Shown here in pieces: positions 1-37,376 of a stretch of 64,000 bases of DNA. The stretch spans positions 1-64,000 of the forward strand of contig CAXKVR010000130.1 in assembly GCA_964058845.1 (NCBI GenBank). Reading direction: 5' to 3'. Position 1 is the first letter of the stretch. The number at the start of each line of letters is the position of its first letter. Both the position numbers and the translations under genes were made by a program. The notes beneath the pieces were generated by a model that ran no database searches, was not told where the DNA came from, and saw only the letters and a program-made list of their open reading frames with translations. Source of the stretch: Carex sylvatica (taxonomy: Eukaryota; Streptophyta; Magnoliopsida; Poales; Cyperaceae).

Positions 1-420
1 GATTGAAATGTATCAGCTCTCATTATTTTTTAGACATTATATGTGAATAATATAAATCACATCTATAATCTTAAATTTCCAATTTAAACATTAATATAAT
101 TTAAATATTGTTCTAGTAAAAACTATATATAAATCATTGTCAAATGAGTTAAAAGACTAAATAAAAATTCAACATGGAATGCCCAGAAATAGAGAGTGTA
201 TTGTAGATTTGGATGAAAATTAAGACAAAATTCATGATTTGATGAGTGAAAAAAACAACCAATTACACAACACAGAAAAAAACTCCTAGCTGGCTAGCTA
301 GTGTATTGATTATTGAATCATCGAAATGCTGACCTAGCATGTATTAAAATTGTTTCGTTATACTTATATATATTCTTTGGGCCTTACAATTGTTTTCGTG
401 GATTGAAGAACTCCCGGAAC
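1..420. other. Upstream flank, no gene seen
   Basis: AT-rich sequence without a supportable gene. The last 40 bases or so (from about 385) match the sequence just upstream of the second caleosin gene (from about 19576), so this is where the duplicated segment becomes recognisable before a transposon interrupts it. Confidence 0.5.
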
Positions 421-8796: not shown

Positions 8797-11152
8797 TGGA
8801 CTTGGGTGAGCCATGGTGTTGGGGTTTTGACAGTTCAAACCCATTGATTTGATTAAGTGCGGAAAGAACGTAAAACAAAAATTTTACTTCTAATCTTAAT
8901 CCAAGGATTAAACGGGGTATGTCAGGAAACATTCCAAGGGGTCCACTTTCCGTATTCCTTTGACATCAGAACCCTATTTAATCCTTTTACAGATCTACTC
9001 CATAATTGATTTCTAAAACATTAATCTACTTACCAGTTAAATAGATTAATATAACTTGTATATACCTTGTTTCCAAATTCTGATTGGAAAGCAGACCGAG
9101 CGAGAAGAGCTACACCAGGGAATGACTCGTCTCGGAGTATCACACGTGTGATACCTCTATCAGTTATCCACCAGGACTAACTAGAGAGCGGTTTATTTCT
9201 TATTGCCAGAAATATCGTAAACCGTGGTTTTCTGCAAAAACACTATTCACCGAGAAAAGGACGAAATAACACTATTCACGACCCGCAGTTATTCAGATTC
9301 ACTAATAAGCAAAAAATAGAAATACCGCGACTTTCGCAAATCTATTATTTCCGAATTCCGAATCCCGTAAACTACCATAACCGAGAAAGAGAGAAAATAG
9401 AAACTCGAAACGATCTGACAATCTGATACGATGTGAATTAGCAAGTTTCTCTCTTACCCTCACCCCTCTATTTATAGGCATTTGAGGAGGTTTGGGAATT
9501 ACCAAAATGCCATTTACCAAAATGTCATTTACGGAAATGCTATTGAATGGATAAGGATGATGACATGTCATGTGGATAAGGATGATGACATGTCATGTGT
9601 AAAAAGACCAAAATGCCCTTGGCTCAAATTTAATTTAACATCCATATAATTATTCTGAACAATTATATTTCTTGCAGTTTGTTGTTTCGGTAACTTTTAT
9701 ACAGCGTAACGGGTACGTTTATAAATTAACCTTTTGTTTTTGCTTTGCCAATTTATATGACATTTATAATTTAATTATATCATGTATAATTAATTATAAC
9801 CATCTTAATATTAATTATAATCAATTTATATTTAATCAATAAGATTCTCCGATTAGCTCCTATACGGTGTGACCCAATAGGATCTGTGTTATGTTGGTAA
9901 ATAGAATTAAAACTGTTTTAACTTCTATAATCATGAGAGGCATCTGGCATAACGCGTCATGACCATCCAATTACACAGATGATGCTGTACTGTACAATAT
10001 CACGATCCAGTAAACTATTTTACTCGTGTCAGTTCTTTCGTCTCATAGCTATCAGATCAGTTTCAAGGTAGGTGTGTGTCATCCTTGCAAACTTAATCTT
10101 TTCTTGATCTTGAGCAGATTATCAAATATAATTACTCTTGTAATTATACCGCTAACAGATAATCTTACTCTATCAAGGGGCCCAGTGATGTTATAGCTCG
10201 TATAGAGATACGAGGGACAATAGTACTTTTGGTAAACCATCACTACCTCAGCTAAGCTATGTGTACCGAAAAGCTACCGTTATAACTGCGTTTTACCGAC
10301 AGCGTTAGATAACAATCACACATACACATTTCTTAGTAGGAAAGATGAATACCTCATACTTTAGAACTTAACACTGAATGAAAACATTAATGACACGTAC
10401 ACAATTCTATTTAATGTTTCATTCGGGGTCTGTCAAATACCATGTTCCTAGAACATGTATCTATGTGATTAAAATGACATCTCTTGTCAGTGGTCTGTAA
10501 AACTTGACCATCTTTTAATCCACATACTAACCTTGTAACGGTTAATTAGTGTTCCTGCTAATTACCTCAGTTAGTGACTTTTTAAGAATATATAACATCT
10601 ATATTATGAAGTTTCACAATTCCAGTTATTGACTCTAGTCAAATAAAGGAATGATTCATAAATGTAATAATATTCAAGGCAACAAAATGACAGTTTATTT
10701 AATCACTCAATTCATGAACAAAGCTTTATGATAATTTATCGTATTGTTGACTTCTAGATTATTACAAACTAACACATGGCTCACCAAGCATTTATACTCC
10801 ACGCCGTATTTTTATTTTGAAAGTCCAAACGACCGATCCGAACCGTTAGATATGATCTCTATATTGAAATGTGCTTGGAGACCAAATTTTATATTTTTTG
10901 GAATTTTTTTATTATTTATTAAGCATTTTTTAAAATTGCTGTTTTGCTGTGAACAGTAAAAACAGTAAAATTTTCTGGACCATCGGATCAGCAATTTTAA
11001 AAAATATTTAATAAATAGTAAAACAATTCCAAAAAATATAAAATTTGGTCTCCAAGCACATTTCAATATAGAGATCATATCTAACGGTTCGGATCGGTCG
11101 TTTGGACTTTCCAAATGGCTAAAATGAGCCATGACTCATTTTAGCCCAATTC
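8795..11152. mobile_element. Miniature element split by a solo LTR
   Basis: The left fragment is 8795-8816 (starting like the element at 7873) and the right part 10775-11152, which has the inverted arms with TTTGGTCTCCAA. The two pieces rejoin at CATGG once the intervening solo LTR is removed. Confidence 0.75.
8812..10779 (-). mobile_element. Solo LTR, 1.96 kb (TSD CATGG)
   Basis: The element is 8817-10774, starting TGTTGGGG and ending CTAACA (TG..CA ends), with a perfect 5-bp duplication CATGG at 8812-8816 and 10775-10779. No gag or pol sequence lies inside, as expected after LTR-LTR recombination. A strong TATA-like sequence, CCTATAAATAGAGGGG, reads on the minus strand near 9480, and the minus-strand end reads ACCCCAACA, so the LTR is probably oriented leftwards. 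The parent family is not identified. Confidence 0.85.
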
Positions 11153-28576: not shown

Positions 28577-30240
28577 GCCTATAGGACGGTGGTATCTTTT
28601 GCTTTTAGTGCTTTTGGGTTCAAGTGTAAGCTTTTACTTTTTTCTCACTTTTTTCTCCTTGGAGTTTTCTTTATTAAACCAAAAAGAAGAGGGGCCTTTT
28701 CTTAAAGGAGGAAAGGATTGAAAGGAGAACATTTTATAAATGAATTGAAGATTCAGGTTGCTTGGCCGGGTGGATATCACTTATCATTGTAAAATTTGGT
28801 TAAATACATACAAGCTATATTAATTCCTTACAATATGTGCATCTGTGCATGGTTCTATTTTTTTGTCATCATCAATTGAGGTAAACTAATGTAATCTTAA
28901 ATTTATTTTTTCATTTCTCTTTCTTTCTTTTTTTTGAAACCTTCCATGCATCAGAATTGTACCTCAATTTGTCCTACGTTCAGATATGATCCAACGACCG
29001 TACAGCTATCTAGCACTAGAACCAAATTTAATAACAAAAATCAACTCAATCTTGATCCTCGAATATGCTCGTTTATCTCTGGAGAAATCCAACGAATTTT
29101 GTACAACTGGAGAGGGATTTTGATCCATAATTTTTTTCTATCTCAAATCAGATTGGGTCCCGGTAATATTATGTCTAAGGATCCTTCGATTATAATGGAT
29201 AGGATCTAAATAAATTAATATCCATAATTTGTTTGTGAATTATCAGCTCCTGATGCTTTCATAATGGATCATTACCAGTGGATGAACTTTTTTTATTAAA
29301 AATTATAATTCTCATGACCTTCTTTGTTTAAACATTCCGCATCAAATATTTTATAATGAAGTTTGATTATAATAATAACAACACAACACATGAACACAAT
29401 AATTAAATTAAAAATAGAAACTCTAAATTTTATTGTAATATGATGATCTTTAGATCAAGTGTAAAACAGTCTGAACGGATCGTCACTTTTTGTTCATTCT
29501 TAGATACTATGTAAACTTTTTCATAAATATTTTTTTTCCATATTTTATACATATTAATTCATAAGAAATTATGTCACAATTACCTCCTCTGTTTACATGG
29601 GCATCGTGTCTAGTTCATTTTAGGTTGGATAAGTAAAAAATCATACCCTAACCCATTATAATAATGTCGGTTTGAGGTATGATTCAGATTGTACATAAGA
29701 AAAACACTAATATTATAACAGTAAAATCATATCCTACTTAATTTGTTTGGGCCTGGATAAGTGTCGGTTGGAATCCAATTTGAGACCAGATCGAAATCAT
29801 ATAATCCGATAAAAATAGCACATCTAGCTACAGAATAATCCTACCTCTAGTAGTTATGCTTTAATTGGGTTGACATTATAAATCTCATATCAAAAGCCCA
29901 CATAGACAAAGGCATAAAAGGTTGTTAATTGAAGCGAAATTCAGTTGCTTCTATGTTTCAATATTAAAATGATTTATTAGTCTAAGATATAATTTATTGT
30001 CAAAACTCAAAAGATTGTTATCCTTGTGGATCCGACTCCGCTGCTCTCTAAATAAGACTGTTATTTAAAATTGAACCGTTAAATTTTTCATGCACGGATC
30101 TCAACAGAGATGAACGGTTCGATCGCTACTTTTATTGCCTTAAAAAGCAGCCTACGCTACGCCTAAGGGCTTTTTCTCCCATCTAGTGCGTCCAATGTAA
30201 AATAAACGGACCAGATCCATAACAGCGTGCTTCTTACTAA
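28577..30240. other. Gene-free spacer
   Basis: Probably starts with the 3' UTR of the PDLP-like gene. A 91-codon open frame at 28934-29209 has no recognisable features. Near 30075-30115 GAACCGTT and its inverse AACGGTTC suggest a decayed miniature element. Confidence 0.45.
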
Positions 30241-30261: not shown

Positions 30262-30275
30262 TATTAACAGCCTTC

Positions 30276-30337
30276 TGTTGGATTTATTACCAACCTCATT
30301 GGATTTAATGCCAACATTGAGCATATATGTAATCTAA
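30276..30337 (+). repeat. First 62 bp of a 5' LTR
   Basis: Matches positions 1-62 of the 3' LTR at 35791 with one difference (CTCATTGG versus CTCGTTGG), then breaks into inverted leader sequence. Confidence 0.9.
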
Positions 30338-30870
30338 ATGTGCAATCAAACTAACGCAAAAGAAAATTTTAATTGCTTCACAATAATTTGCAGTTTTCAA
30401 AATTTAGCTTTACCCTAATCAAATTATTGCATACTCTGTTGTGGTCTAAAAAATAGCAGCGGAATACTTAAAAAAAAATTTGTTTAACAAAATCACTTTA
30501 ATATGTTATAATCAAAATAGAAATTTCAACATAATTTGATCCGAATATAATTCCAAAACTTTGATAATAAGCATTGAACATATAATCCAGCCGAATCAAT
30601 AAATTCAGAATATGCATTAGTAATCAACAAATTAGAATATCCAGCCGAATCAAATAAATCAATAAATCCATAATTATTGCATATTCTGATTTAGTAATAA
30701 AATTACCCAAATTATTAATTATAACATAGTAAAATATATATTTATTTTTTTATTATTGCTCGGATAGCATAGTAATAAAAATAAATAATTTCAAAGCAAT
30801 TGAAAAATCAACAATCAATTTTTATTCTATAGATCAATTCTAAACAAACAATTCAAATTGGCATAGGAGT

Positions 30871-30883
30871 GGCTCTGATACCA
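30871..30883 (-). other. Inverted primer-binding site
   Basis: The minus strand reads TGGTATCAGAGCC directly after the end of the inverted LTR (two bases between). This is the usual plant Copia site complementary to initiator tRNA-Met. The sequence left of it (to 30338) is the untranslated leader in inverted orientation. Confidence 0.9.
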
Positions 30884-30885
30884 CT

Positions 30886-31685
30886 TGTTGGAACTTTATT
30901 GTTACACTAAAACAATTCGACTACATAAACAGTTCAATTCAATATGCCACTATTGATCTACCTATGCCAAAATGGCCATCATGCAAAATTCATCAATTCT
31001 TATGGAGCAGACGCAATACCTGATTCCATTAGTGTGTTTGCGTTAAGCTTCTCTCAAAAGCGGTTGATAAACTTGTGTGAGATAGCGGCAAGAAAACATT
31101 CCTACCGATGTAGTGGTTGAAGCGTCGGCGGCCTCCTTAGTGATATGATGAAGCCTTCCAAAGCTACAAGACTGCCCTTTTGAGATCGTGTTCACAATTC
31201 CTTAATGATCTCACCTCTCTATTCTTTAATGGGGAGAAGTAGAGAAGGCCACAGAATTGACTAGATGACGGCTAGAAAATTCTGCAACTTTTCGTATATC
31301 CTTGTGCTTTGGGGACCAACCTATTTATAGAGATGAGGAGTAGGCATATTGCCAAACCGTAACCCTAAACTGATTTTCTGGCCACATGCCAACTTTAAAA
31401 AAAATGTGCATCAAAAAACGTGCCACTGCATCAAAATCCGTGCAGCAGCTAGAGAATCGATTTTCCTTAATTGCAAATTTCAGAATCAGTCCATCAATGA
31501 TTTGATCTTTGCCTAAATTGTTCTACACATTTGTGGACCATATCCTAATGAATATATTGATTGTCTATTTCCTTATTTGATCACTTTAATTGACAACCAT
31601 ATGTGACAGTAAATAATACATAATTAGATTACATATATGCTCAATGTTGGCATTAAATCCAACGAGGTTGGTAATAAATCCAACA
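30886..31685 (-). repeat. Complete LTR in inverted orientation (800 bp)
   Basis: Reverse complement of the 3' LTR (35791-36590), same 800-bp length, a few percent different by eye. It starts exactly at TGTTGGATTT (31685) and ends at TTCCAACA (30886). Its outer terminus abuts gag sequence at 31686. Confidence 0.92.
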
Positions 31686-32498
31686 ATTATGTCTATGTTG
31701 TGTGGACAAATGGACAATAAATGGATAATAAATGAGCTGATTTCACAGTGTGTGGAGGAAGAGGAGAGGATGAAACGGGATAAGACTGAAAATGTCTATG
31801 TTGCTACTACCTCTAAGACTAAGAGTGGAGTCAAGCGCAAGAAATCGGACAAGTCTAAGGATACTAAAGCTGCAGTCTCTACATAGCAGAACAAACCGGA
31901 TAAGGGCAAGTCAGTTGTAAAATATGATGAGTCGGTTTGCTTCTTCTGCAATGGAGCAGGACACAAGAAGAAATACTGTCAGGCTTACCACGCATGGCGT
32001 GCTAAGAAAGGTATATCTCTTGCTTTGGTTTGTACAGAAGTTAATTTGATTTCTGTATCTAGATACACTTGGTGGATAGATTCAGGAGTAACTACTTACA
32101 TAAGTGTATCTTTGCAGGGCTGCCAAAATTATCGGAAGCCAAGTGATGATGAAAGATTCATTTTTGTGGGCGATGGTGGCAAGGTGGAAGTGCAAGCTAT
32201 TGGAGTGTTTAGATTATTATTAAAATCAAGTTTTTATTTGGATTTGTATGAAACTTTTGTTGTTCCGTCTTTTAGACGAAATTTAATTTTTGTATCATCT
32301 TTGGACAAGCATGGTTTTGCTTGTAATTTTGGTAATAGAAAATTTAATTTGTTTCATGATTCAAAGTGTGTTGGCTCTGGTTTTATTTCTGTTTATGATA
32401 ATCTATACACATTAGATATAAATAGCTCGTAAATTGAGGCTTTGCAAACAGATACAAGAAAAAAAAAATTAACAAATGAGAACTCAGCCACATTATGA
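31686..32498 (+). pseudogene. Copia gag C-terminal part and protease, stop codons
   Basis: Gag is entered in its middle (first recognisable stretch NELISQCVEEEERMKRD). A CCHC zinc knuckle CFFCNGAGHKKKYC lies at about 31940-31981. The protease follows with WWIDSGVTTYIS; the family normally has DSGAT/DSGTT, so the third active-site position is substituted by Val. In-frame stops at 31884 (TAG), 32430 (TAA) and 32496 (TGA; the context suggests a former Trp in the LWHxRLGH motif). There are no frameshifts. Not able to make an intact polyprotein. Confidence 0.85.
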
Positions 32499-33326
32499 CA
32501 CAAGCGATTAGGTCATATTTCTATAAAAAGAATTAAACGCCTTGTGTCAAATGAAATTCTCCAACCCTTAAATTACTCGGATCTTAATGATTGTGTAAAT
32601 TGTATAAAAGGGAAACAAACCAACTTAAGAAAATATCAAGCCAGAAAGTGTTTGAAAGTCTTAGAATTTATACATACGGATATCTGTGGTCCGTTTCCAA
32701 CGGCCACAAGAAATGGACACCGTTATTTCATTTCTTTCATAGATGACCATTCGAGATATGGCTATGTATATTTGATTAAAGAAAAGGCTCAAGCCCTTGA
32801 CATGTTCAAAAGTTTCAAGGCGGAAGTTGAGCTACAACTCAACAGACGCATTAAGGCCATCAGATCTGACCGTGGTGGAGAATACTATGGCAGATATGAT
32901 GGATCAGGTGAACAACGTCGAGGGCCTTTTGCTCAGTTCATAGATGAATGCGGAATTATTCCTCAGTATACATTGCCTGGTTCGCCAGCAATGAATGGAG
33001 TATCTGAGAGGCGAAATAGAATGCTTAAGGACATGGTAAGGAGTATGATTAGTCGTACTACTTTACCAGATAATCTATGGGGTGAGGCCTTAAAGTCTGC
33101 AGCTTATATACTTAACAGAGTACCCACTAAAGCAACTAACAAAACCCCATATGAGATTTGGACCAGGCGTAAGCCAAATTTAGGTCATTTGCGAGTATGG
33201 GGATGTCCAGCTGAGGCAAGGCCTTACAAACCTGCCGAAAAAAAACTGGATGAAAGGACAGTTAGTTGTTATTTTATTGGATATGCCGAGCGCTCAAGGG
33301 GTTATAAATTTTATAATCCTACATAA
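32499..33326 (+). pseudogene. Copia integrase
   Basis: GAG-pre-integrase motif HKRLGH, then the integrase core with Asp of HTDICGPF, Asp of IRSDRGGEYYG and Glu of GVSERRNRMLKDM (the DDE triad), followed by the conserved PYEIWTRRKPNLGHLRVWGC segment. It ends at a TAA (33324) that interrupts the frame before the region leading to reverse transcriptase. The triad is present, so this domain itself looks undamaged. Confidence 0.88.
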
Positions 33327-35345
33327 CATAATGTATTTGAGACGGGAAATGCAAAATTTTTTGAGGATGTTGAGTTTGTGAGGGGTGAGAAAATAATTGA
33401 TTTCGAAGAAGAATATGCAAATATTGAAGAGGAATATGCAAATATTCCATTAGGTGTTACGAGTTTTGTTGATATAAATCCGAGTTTTACTCAAAACACC
33501 ATTACGGAAGAAATCATTATTGAAACTCAAACTCAACAAGATGAAACAGCACAAAATGAAAATACAAAGACTGGTGCAGGCCACTCAGAAGGTTTGGAAG
33601 ATGCTGTTGTAGGCCAGATTGTTTCAAGCAATGCTGAAAATTCTCAGGAAAATTTAGAAGAGCCAATTAGGAGGTCCACTAGAGAGAGAAGGCTTGCAAT
33701 ATCTTCGGATTATGTAGTATACCTTCAAGAGCATGAGTTTGATGTTGGCATGTTAGACAATGACCCCATTAATGTCAAACAAGCCATGGAAAGCTCTAAC
33801 TCTCACAAGTGGACCGTTGCCATGAATGAGAAAATAAAATCTATGGTAGACAATGACGTTTGGGAAATTATCTCATTACCAGCAGGAAAGAGAACCATTG
33901 GTTGCAAATGGATATTTAAGACCAAATGGGACTCAAAGGGTAATGTAGAGAAATATAAGGCACGTCTTGTCGCTAAAGGTTTTACTCAAAAAGAAGGCAT
34001 TGATTATAAAGAGACTTTCTCTCCGGTTTCACTGAAAGACTCTTTAAGAATCATATTGGCATTAGTGGCACATTTCAATTTGGAACTTCATCAGATGGAT
34101 GTTAAAACTGCTTTTCTCAATGGTAACATTGAAGAAACAATTTATATAGTGCAACCAGAAAACTATGTATCAGAAGATGCAAAGTCTATGGTGTGCAAAC
34201 TTAAAAAATCCATCTATGGACTAAAGCAGACGTCTCGTCAGTGGTATTATAAATTTCAAAATGTGATTGTCTCATTTGGTTTCGAGTCTAACATTGTGGA
34301 TGAATGTATATATCTCAAGTTCTATGGGAGTAAATTTGTATTTCTGGTTTTATATGTCGATGACATTTTGCTTGCCAGTAATGATATAAGTATGTTGCAA
34401 CAAACTAAGAACTTTCTGATGAAGAATTTTGAGATGAAAGATCTTGGTGATGCATCATTTGTCCTAGGGATAGAAATACTGAGGAATAGAACCCAAGGTA
34501 TATTAGGATTATCCCAAATGAATTATATCGATAAGGTTTTGGCAAGATATGGCATGCAGAACTGTAAACCAGGAAATACCCCTGTGGCAAAGGGAGACAA
34601 GTTCAGTCTAAACCAATGCCCGAAAAATAATTCAGAAAAGGAAGTAATGCTACAGTATCCATATGCCTCAGTCGTTGGGAGCATCATGTATGCGCAAGTG
34701 TGTACGCGTCCGGATATTGCGTTCATCACTGGCATACTAGGGAGATACTTGTCAAATCCAGGTCCAGATCATTGGAAAGCTGCCAAGCGAGTCTTGAGGT
34801 ACCTGAAGCGAACAAAAGACCATATACTCACGTATTGGAAATCGGAGAAGCTAGAGGTCATTGGCTATACCGACTCTGATTTTGGAGGATGTCAGGATAG
34901 CATGAAATCGACATCCGGCTACATTTACATGTTAGCCGGAGGAGCTGTTTCATGGAAGAGTGCAAAACAATCCCTTGTTGCATCTTTCACCATGGCAGCA
35001 GAATTTGTGGCATGCTATGAGGCATCAAATCATGGTGTTTGGCTACGAAATTTTGTCACTAGACTTCGAGTGGTGGATTATATTGAGAGACCACTACAAT
35101 TGTTCTATGACAACAATTCGGCTGTGCTGTACGCAAATAACAACCGAAGTTCATCGAAGTCCAAGTACATCGACATCAAGTTCTTAGTTGTAAAGGAAAG
35201 AGTACAGAATGGTGAATTGAAAATAGAACATGTAGAAACAGACTCTATGTTAGCAGATCCTCTTACTAAAGAATTGACACCGGCTAAATTTGTAGAGCAT
35301 GTTGCTCATATGGGTGTAATCTCTATTGAGGATATTCAGTTTTAG
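33327..35345 (+). pseudogene. Copia reverse transcriptase and RNase H
   Basis: Continues in the frame of the integrase after the stop at 33324. An acidic linker is followed by RT with WIFKTKWDSKGNVEKYKARL, DVKTAFLNGNIEE and the catalytic YVDDILLAS, then RNase H with YTDSDFGGCQDSMKSTSGY and AAEFVACYEA. It ends at a TAG (35343), 445 bp before the 3' LTR. This 655-codon stretch is open throughout. Confidence 0.92.
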
Positions 35346-35777
35346 TGGGAGTCTATAATTTATAATGTTCTATTTTTCATTGCAATTTTGGATATGTAAC
35401 TTGTGACATGTAACAAGTGTTATATATATTATGAAGTTTTTTGACATTCTGTTTCTCGTTTATGTTTGACTTCTAATTAAGTTAATGAAATTCAGTTTCA
35501 AGATTTAAGTAGGAGACCAAGTTAGAAATAGGCATGTAAGATCACAATTGCATGTAATTTCTATGCTACACATCCACATCATGATTCATGTCATTCAGCT
35601 GTATTAGTGATGTTATTATTGAGGATTTAGTTGCGAATAAATGCGACGAATGCCACTTTAGTCCTTTGCTGATATAGTTGATGGACTGAATTGGTTTGGG
35701 AATATATAAGGAAGACAGTAAAGAAATGTGCGCACATAAGGAACACAATGCATAATTAAAAAGTCATAACATATTGC

Positions 35778-35790
35778 TCAAGTGGGAGAT
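35778..35790 (+). other. Polypurine tract
   Basis: CTCAAGTGGGAGAT directly precedes the 3' LTR; the AGTGGGAGAT core is typical of the plus-strand primer of plant Copia elements. Confidence 0.8.
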
Positions 35791-36590
35791 TGTTGGATTT
35801 ATTACCAACCTCGTTGGATTTAATGCCAACATTGAGCATATATGTAATCTAATTATGTATTATTTACTGTCATATATGGTTGTCAATTAAAGTGATCAAA
35901 TAAGAAAATAGACAATCAATATATTCATTAGGATATGGTCCACAAATGTGTAGAACAATTTAGGCAAAGATCAAATCATTGATGGGCTGATTCTGAAATT
36001 TGCAATTAAAGAAAACCGATTCTCTAGCTGCTACACGGATTTTGATGCAGTGGCACGTCTTTTGATGCACATTTTTTTTAAAGTTGGCATGTGGCCAGAA
36101 AATCGATTTAGGATTAGGGTTTGGCAATATGCCTACTCCTCATCTCTATAAATAGGTTGGTCCCCAAAGCACAAGGATATACGAAAAGTTGCAGAATTTT
36201 CTAGCCGTCATCTAGTCAATTCTGTGGCCTTCTCTACTTCTCCCCATTAAAGAATAGAGATGTGAGATCATTAAGGAATTGTAAACACGATCTCAAAAGG
36301 GCAGTCTTGTAGCTTTGGAAGGATTCATCATATCATTAAGGAGGCCGCCGACGCTTCAACCTCTACATCGGTAGGAAGGTTTTCTTGCCGCTGTCTCACA
36401 TAAGTTCATCAACAACTTTTGAGAGAAGCTTAACGCAAATACACTAATGGAATCAGGTATTGCGTCTGCTCCCTAAGAATTGATGAATTTTGCATGATGG
36501 CCATTTTAACATAGATAAATCAATAGTAGTATATTGAATTGAACTATTTATGTGGTGAAATTATTTTAGTGTAACAATAAAGTTCCAACA
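35791..36590 (+). repeat. 3' LTR (800 bp)
   Basis: TGTTGGATTT..AAGTTCCAACA. It contains CTCTATAAATAGG near 36144, a plausible TATA box. The LTR ends 224 bp upstream of the ATG of the small heat-shock protein gene and points toward it, so LTR-initiated transcription could reach it. Confidence 0.92.
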
Positions 36591-36814
36591 CCTTCATCTT
36601 ATCACTCTTTTCTTCTCCACCATCTCTGATCCCTCTCGTGCACTATCTAGAACCATCCTTCTCGATTTGTCCGGGAAAGGTGGGTGCCTCTAAACAACTC
36701 TCATTTATTACAACCAATCAACACCGGCCCCTCCTTTCTCCTACCGCAACTCGTGCTATTAAAATCCCAGCAGCTCCCAAATCCAATTCATCTTTTGGAA
36801 AGCAACAAGGCTCC

Positions 36815-37376
36815 ATGGCTGATCTGTTTCTTGGTAGCCCCTTCAGGCGATTTCTGTGGGGCCCAACAGTGCTCCGAGAATGGCAGGGATCATCGGCCGG
36901 TGCCATGGACTGGATCGAGACCCCTTCTTCCCATCTCCTCAAATTCAATGTTCCTGGTAGCTATATATATCCTTTCTTTTGTCCTTTGAATTAATATATA
37001 TCATTTTTACTATTTTGTACTTGAATTTTGGTAGTGCTGGAGTGCTGAATCCTGATTGCGCAATGGAATTTTGATAAATAAAACAGGGTATGGAAAGGAT
37101 CAGATCAAAATTCAGCTGGAGGAGGACAATGTGCTGAGCATCAGGGGCGAGGGTTTAAGTTTAAGTGCGAAAGAAGAGGCACCGAAGGATTCAGTGTGGC
37201 ATGTCAGTGAGAGAGGCAAGGGGGAATTTGCAAGGAATGTCGTGTTGCCAGAGAGCGTCAGAGCCGATCAGATCAAGGCGCAAGTGGAGAATGGTGTTCT
37301 TACTATTGTATTGCCCAAAGAGCCAGCACCGGCCAAACCGAAAACTAGACCCATTCCGGTCTCAAGCAAGCTTTGA
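36815..37376 (+). CDS. HSP15.7: Peroxisomal small heat-shock protein, HSP15.7-like (2 exons, 143 aa)
   Basis: Exons: 36815-36956 and 37087-37376, joined in frame through VPG-YGKDQ. Small heat-shock proteins are ATP-independent chaperones that hold unfolding proteins. The alpha-crystallin domain covers about residues 30-130: SSHLLKFNVPG, NVLSIRGEG, a beta-strand FARNVVLPESV, and the closing GVLTIVLPK. The protein ends in SKL, the canonical type-1 peroxisomal import signal, as in Arabidopsis HSP15.7. No I-x-I/V oligomerisation motif followed by extra domains is added beyond RPIPVSSKL. The start MADLF was chosen because it gives the family's usual N-terminus and length (about 137-145 aa). A Copia element sits 224 bp upstream; see the heat-shock element at 30249. 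Confidence 0.9.

What the first reader, a model, noticed from the sequence alone, without database searches (positions are those of the whole stretch)
30271..36595. Copia element whose 5' LTR and leader are inverted inside otherwise intact outer ends
Both outer termini are proper LTR ends inside one CCTTC duplication, yet the interior runs LTR(1-62) +, leader -, PBS -, whole LTR -, then gag-pol + and 3' LTR +. The inverted LTR joins gag exactly at its terminal base (31685/31686), the point where integrase would join it. Two explanations: (a) self-integration of the cDNA before or during insertion, which is expected to invert an LTR plus leader; (b) a second copy of the same family inserted into gag in opposite orientation, then a deletion fused its leader to the first 62 bp of the host LTR. 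Under (b) the insertion should have had a 5-bp duplication of gag sequence ATTAT. The breakpoint at 30337/30338 shares only TAA. A genomic fossil of retrotransposon autointegration would be unusual.
Basis: partly seen in the sequence, partly recalled or inferred. Interest (0 to 1): 0.85.

Follow-up and report, generated by a model that had tools for sequence, protein, structure and literature searches.

The report
Copia retrotransposon with inverted 5' LTR
A dead retrotransposon copy carries its own front end upside down inside normal outer ends, most likely because the copying enzyme jumped between templates while the DNA copy was being made; it is a rare variant of a known kind of accident rather than a new system.

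Summary
The anatomy is real. One CCTTC duplication encloses LTR(1-62)+, leader-, PBS-, a full LTR-, gag-pol+ and the 3' LTR+. Three details differ from the finding. (1) The left breakpoint shares 8 nt (TAATCTAA), not 3. (2) The inverted LTR is followed by AT and then, probably, the start of gag, with a 485-nt deletion and an 11-nt duplication. (3) ATTAT is not native gag: the three closest gag-bearing copies read GATAT or AATAT. Among 37 LTRs the inverted and 3' LTRs are sisters (97/95), as in most resolved 5'/3' pairs, so an unrelated second copy is unlikely; a sibling is not excluded. Their private changes are uneven (11 against 23, p 0.058), unlike the seven control pairs. Autointegration of one cDNA cannot by itself give this locus, which has three U3 starts where a cDNA has two. 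My preferred reading is RT template switching during cDNA synthesis, then ordinary integration (0.45). Nested insertion of a sibling plus deletion is next (0.25). A second locus, C696, has a 5' LTR plus 10 nt joined exactly to an inverted sister LTR and resembles integrase-made self-insertion more closely. New variant of a known kind.

The parts
30271..30275 (.). target-site duplication CCTTC, left
   Evidence: 5-bp duplications are read beside other copies of the family
30276..30337 (+). LTR positions 1-62, left outer end
   Evidence: one G to A difference from both window LTRs
30330..30337 (.). 8-nt overlap TAATCTAA shared by LTR and native leader at the left breakpoint
   Evidence: junction unique in the genome
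30338..30885 (-). leader, inverted
   Evidence: 94-95% identical over at least 546 of 548 nt at 13 other places
30872..30883 (-). primer binding site motif TGGTATCAGAGC, inverted, two nt from the LTR
   Evidence: match to initiator tRNA-Met recalled, not tested
30886..31685 (-). complete inverted LTR, 800 bp
   Evidence: sister of the 3' LTR
31686..31687 (.). two nt AT between LTR end and gag; the same two nt precede the 3' LTR
   Evidence: possible unprocessed cDNA end, inference
31688..31706 (+). probable start of gag, 16 of 19 to C419, in frame
31704..31706 (.). GGA at which 485 nt of gag are missing
   Evidence: 485 nt between the two GGA in C419 and C181
31712..31733 (+). 11-nt tandem duplication GGACAATAAAT GGATAATAAAT
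   Evidence: not doubled in the ten relatives aligned
31707..35345 (+). rest of gag-pol, with in-frame stops at 31884, 32430, 32496 and 33324; Copia order integrase before reverse transcriptase
   Evidence: domains Pol_BBD, gag_pre-integrs, rve, SH3_retrovirus, RVT_2
35780..35790 (+). polypurine tract AAGTGGGAG and AT
   Evidence: tract named by position and composition
35791..36590 (+). 3' LTR, right outer end
36591..36595 (.). target-site duplication CCTTC, right

Best explanation
A single aberrant cDNA was made by template switching during reverse transcription and then inserted normally. One possible order: a nascent plus strand began at the polypurine tract, copied LTR 1-62, and switched through the 8-nt TAATCTAA match onto the plus strand of the same or a sister cDNA. 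It copied leader, PBS and LTR backwards until it ran off at that strand's end, then jumped to the start of gag and continued to the end of the 3' LTR. The mirror-image order on the minus strand gives the same product. The molecule had a proper U3 start and a proper U5 end, so integrase inserted it with a 5-bp duplication. Shown: the anatomy, the shared letters, the LTR kinship, the single duplication. Inferred: the polymerase, the order, and that both steps came before integration.
For: One TSD with two correct LTR termini fits one integration of the composite. The inverted LTR and 3' LTR are sisters, 97/95, with two shared substitutions seen in none of 36 other LTRs. Run-off explains why the inner junction lies at the LTR terminus, and AT fits an unprocessed end. 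The 8-nt microhomology fits a template jump. The two LTRs differ by K 0.045; other pairs range from 0 to 0.064, the four nearest being 0.038 (C34), 0.046 (C284), 0.048 (C155) and 0.054 (C202 3807/8031). Changes other than C to T and G to A are even, 6 against 4 (split made after seeing the data). Precedent: TSD-flanked template-switch complexes in grasses (PMC1950507, main text read).
Against: Two switches are needed in one cDNA. The 3' LTR has 23 private changes against 11 in the inverted LTR (p 0.058); the seven control pairs in the same call are even (p 0.51 to 1.0), so the window pair is the most uneven of eight. Private changes are 8 of 1342 on the inverted side and 30 of 2566 on the forward side (p 0.088). 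Both lean towards a younger inverted part, although the LTR excess is deamination-type (5 against 19). The precedents found are direct, not inverted. No empty site or second haplotype was found, and no reads are held.
Confidence: 0.45

Rival explanations
1. A sibling copy inserted in reverse into the gag start of the first element, and a later deletion between LTR position 62 and the second copy's leader, through TAATCTAA, removed the rest.
For: Insertion plus microhomology deletion are both common (general knowledge). It explains the exact LTR end and leans with the 11:23 and 8/1342 vs 30/2566 counts. Independent sister insertions do exist in the family: C140 and C66 (99/97), with different flanks.
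Against: The next five letters are ATTAT where native gag reads GATAT or AATAT. With 30-40 insertions (assumed) spread at random, 0.03-0.06 opposite-facing pairs within 5 kb are expected and two are seen, P 0.0006-0.002; with 5-fold clustering P is 0.013-0.038, and with 20-fold clustering 0.15-0.34, no longer surprising (computed after seeing the two). It needs the second copy to be the closest kin of the first among the LTRs sampled.
Confidence: 0.25
2. Integrase joined the LTR end of a sister cDNA into gag of another cDNA before chromosomal integration (autointegration in the wide sense), with later loss of the piece between.
For: LTR terminus at the inner junction; sister LTRs; C696 shows an exact inverted LTR end 10 nt after a sister LTR; autointegration is an established fate of cDNA (PMC2644782, passages; PMC9694575, passages).
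Against: A single cDNA has two U3 starts and the locus has three. AT lies between LTR and gag and the target letters are not native. Products described in the passages read are circles.
Confidence: 0.15
3. A normally inserted element broke later, and repair copied or captured an inverted LTR-leader piece from a sister chromatid or an unintegrated cDNA.
For: 8-nt microhomology on one side; on the other either a gag deletion with an 11-nt duplication or a patchwork filler (12 of 12 nt from gag 100 nt downstream, p 0.0004).
Against: Repair copying would not stop at the LTR terminus except by chance; continuation into the flank (GAAGG) is not seen. Capture of a linear cDNA would explain the terminus, so this form is not excluded.
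Confidence: 0.15

Closest known systems
Template-switching complexes of Copia elements in Triticeae, rice and maize (Sabot and Schulman 2007, PMC1950507, main text read)
   Same: Extra LTR inside one 5-bp TSD; LTR similarity pointing to one reverse-transcription cycle
   Different: Theirs have two full cores and three LTRs in direct order; here the LTR and leader are inverted, the left LTR is 62 bp and gag is cut
Autointegration of Ty1 and retroviral cDNA (passages of PMC2644782 and PMC4751563; the Ty1 paper of Garfinkel and others 2006 is not held and was not read)
   Same: An LTR end joined to an internal site, with inversion
   Different: Products described are circles; one cDNA cannot supply three U3 starts; the join here carries AT and non-native target letters
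Defective HIV-1 proviruses with internal inversions (PMC9278108, passages)
   Same: Inversion inside an integrated provirus
   Different: No inverted whole LTR was described in the passages read; retrovirus, not Copia

Membership tests
Ty1/Copia LTR retrotransposon | integrase domain before reverse transcriptase | tested here: met
   rve in 32499-33323, RVT_2 in 33327-35342
Ty1/Copia LTR retrotransposon | 5-bp TSD, TG..CA LTRs, PBS next to an LTR, polypurine tract before the 3' LTR | tested here: met
   here the PBS lies beside the inverted LTR
Template-switching complex (Sabot and Schulman) | single TSD around the composite | tested here: met
   CCTTC on both sides
Template-switching complex (Sabot and Schulman) | highly similar outermost LTRs | tested here: inconclusive
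   left outer LTR is 62 bp, one mismatch
Template-switching complex (Sabot and Schulman) | two complete cores around an internal LTR in direct order | tested here: not met
   one partial core, inverted internal LTR
Autointegration product | processed CA end joined to native internal sequence | tested here: not met
   ATTAT against native GATAT or AATAT; later substitutions cannot be excluded (one would do against AATAT, two against GATAT)
Autointegration product | all parts derivable from one linear cDNA | tested here: not met
   three U3 starts in the locus
Nested insertion with deletion | TSD of native target beside the inner LTR | tested here: inconclusive
   the other flank is lost; the near flank is not native

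The most novel reading that the evidence does not exclude
The family leaves chromosomal fossils of failed cDNA processing. The window records a cDNA rebuilt inside the particle by strand switching or inter-cDNA integration and still able to integrate, and C696 records integrase joining a 3' LTR end into the same element's PBS region. Two of the 16 contigs with at least two LTR starts are of this inverted form.
Probability: 0.25. Interest if true: 0.6.

Novelty: new variant of a known kind. Interest (0 to 1): 0.4.

Why it matters
Autointegration and strand-switch accidents are usually seen as extrachromosomal dead ends. If such molecules can still integrate, genome assemblies hold a record from which their rate, junction letters and microhomology can be measured without active elements. 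The sister-LTR test used here helps to separate self-derived inverted LTRs from chance nesting.

Tried and rejected
A filler reading of 31686-31716 (templated patches from nearby gag: 12 of 12 nt ATGTCTATGTTG, p 0.0004 against 300 nt downstream, p 0.02 against 2000 nt) was held first. I dropped it as the leading reading because the same stretch matches the missing gag start colinearly and in frame at 16 of 19 (p 0.004). Three mismatches in 19 nt is high for this family, so filler is not excluded. The claim that the inverted LTR is clearly younger was tested and is not significant. No leader tree was built. The 62-bp piece is too short to date. One scan of viral contigs with the reverse transcriptase part gave no relative. 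No allele or empty site was found in the assembly: each 1-kb flank has one full-length match, itself.

Literature: eight searches (two searches returned nothing) listed no title or abstract start on an inverted whole LTR inside one TSD in a plant. Two papers hold the words 'inverted LTR' (Dictyostelium, locust) and were not opened. The library lacks most subscription journals.

The LTR tree used 37 of the 38 LTRs assembled; the 471-nt C521_17648 was left out. Three further LTR matches of 78-79% identity (C36, C56, C446) were not fetched, nor were the starts found only. One search scored 40 of 158 candidates, so copy counts are lower bounds; one search gave 53 LTR starts at up to 3 mismatches. 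C181's two LTRs are not sisters in the tree, although the data do not reject it (AU p 0.41). Site 772, where both window LTRs differ from the majority and from each other, was left out of the 11:23 count.

Full report
What is there. The window lies in an unnamed 64-Mb assembly (950 contigs), probably a plant (inference from the element type and the HSP20 neighbour). The element runs from 30276 to 36590 between two CCTTC copies. Reading left to right: LTR 1-62 (+), leader (-), PBS (-), a complete 800-bp LTR (-), gag-pol (+), polypurine tract, 3' LTR (+). Domain order is Copia, and the frame is broken by stops at 31884, 32430, 32496 and 33324.

Relatives. The LTR search gave 41 matches, 40 of 158 candidates being scored. 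Most two-LTR copies are short, with LTR starts about 4.25 kb apart; 5-bp duplications are read at C23 ATTAA, C915 AATAC, C1 ATATA, C34 GAAAG, C284 CGTAT and C155 ATAGA. Three copies with gag, C419 (partial), C155 and C181, show the native leader and gag.

Left breakpoint. The native leader of C419, reversed, reads ATATAATCTAAATGTGC and the LTR reads ATGTAATCTAATTATG, so TAATCTAA is shared, 8 nt. The finding's 'only TAA' is corrected.

Right junction. In the gag search, 44 of 44 other rows start at query position 22 or later. In ten relatives aligned, the sequence upstream of the common motif differs from the window's. The 31 nt after the LTR occur nowhere else in the assembly with up to 3 mismatches. 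The window reads AT, then 19 nt that match the gag start at 16 of 19 (MSMLCG against MPMLNG, in the gag frame), and then jumps 485 nt at a GGA shared by both sides. An 11-nt unit is doubled just after; the net loss of 474 keeps the frame. Native letters before the gag match are GGA in C419 and C181 and GAA in C155, so an integrase join would have left GATAT or AATAT rather than ATTAT. The AT equals the two letters between polypurine tract and 3' LTR and mirrors the two letters AG between LTR and PBS, which suggests an unprocessed cDNA end; by chance this has odds of 1 in 16. A templated-filler reading of the same letters remains possible.

Kinship of the LTRs. In a tree of 37 LTRs the inverted and 3' LTRs are sisters, 97/95. 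So are the pairs of C34 (87/85), C155 (85/91), C284 (99/89), both C202 elements (99/96, 100/99) and C23 (identical); C181's is not, and pairs in the young burst are unresolved. Two substitutions are shared by the window's pair and absent from 36 others. Moving the inverted LTR to the young group gives AU p 0.028, and moving the 3' LTR there gives 0.032. Independent insertions can also be sisters (C140 and C66, 99/97), so this favours but does not prove one origin.

Dating. The LTRs differ at K 0.045. Private changes are 11 (inverted) and 23 (3' LTR), p 0.058, whereas seven control pairs are even, p 0.51 to 1.0. Without C to T and G to A they are 6 and 4. Over wider regions they are 8 of 1342 and 30 of 2566, p 0.088. 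Equal age is not rejected; a younger inverted part is not excluded. In that comparison one of five control elements (C34) also differed between sides (p 0.003, from its leader, 21 of 510), so the measure is noisy.

Why not simple autointegration. Joining the ends of one cDNA to its own interior is described as giving circles (PMC2644782 and PMC4751563, passages read), and it leaves the number of U3 starts at two. The locus has three. A second cDNA, or copying, is required. Template switching supplies the third start, keeps both outer ends correct, and predicts run-off at an LTR terminus. Sabot and Schulman (main text read) used one TSD plus LTR similarity to argue for template switching in direct complexes; the inverted form here is my extension.

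How often. Of 16 contigs with at least two LTR starts, 14 hold them in one orientation and two do not: the window contig and C696. If 30-40 insertions (an assumed range) were placed at random, 0.03-0.06 opposite pairs within 5 kb are expected; two or more has P 0.0006-0.002, 0.013-0.038 with 5-fold clustering and 0.15-0.34 with 20-fold clustering.

C696. Here an LTR (+) at 9520-10302 is followed by AATGGTATCA, the start of the PBS region, then exactly by the U5 end of an inverted LTR (10313-11113) and its interior, which stops in the leader about 728 nt after the LTR with no matching duplication on that side. The two LTRs are sisters, 100/99, K 0.027, with even private changes 10 and 11. No extra letters lie at this join, as integrase would give. 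One cDNA whose left end entered the chromosome and whose right end entered its own leader would explain it; nested insertion of a sibling would also do so.

Verdict. I put template switching at 0.45, nested sibling plus deletion at 0.25, inter-cDNA integration at 0.15 and later repair at 0.15. These weights are judgement.

Noticed in passing
L027 and L077 (G000 C696:9520-13829): LTR plus 10 nt of PBS region joined exactly to an inverted sister 3' LTR and interior; right end cut in the leader, no matching TSD there. Candidate self-insertion.
   Followed up: partly
L007-L010 (G000 C109:393554-407131): Three tandem short elements sharing LTRs, outermost LTRs identical, GTTTC on both outer sides; concatemer or unequal exchange.
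   Followed up: partly
window 35791-36590: Private changes of the 3' LTR are strand-biased: 15 G to A against 4 C to T (p 0.019).
   Followed up: partly
L042 and other short copies: Short copies (LTR starts about 4.25 kb apart) show no match to window interior positions 1-1507 (gag and part of pol) and outnumber the gag-bearing ones of this subfamily.
   Followed up: partly
window 30023-30123: A roughly 100-bp repeat in the left flank: 39 of the 41 rows (a capped list) match it; perhaps a MITE.
   Followed up: no
L011, L012, L018, L019: C915 shares 24 nt of left flank with C466 and 24 nt of right flank with C521, so the assembly may hold haplotype duplicates.
   Followed up: no
window 37056-37376: HSP20 small heat-shock protein reading frame about 0.5 kb from the element.
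   Followed up: no
L054 (G000 C155): About 1.47 kb of extra sequence lies in gag of this copy (1952 against 485 nt).
   Followed up: no
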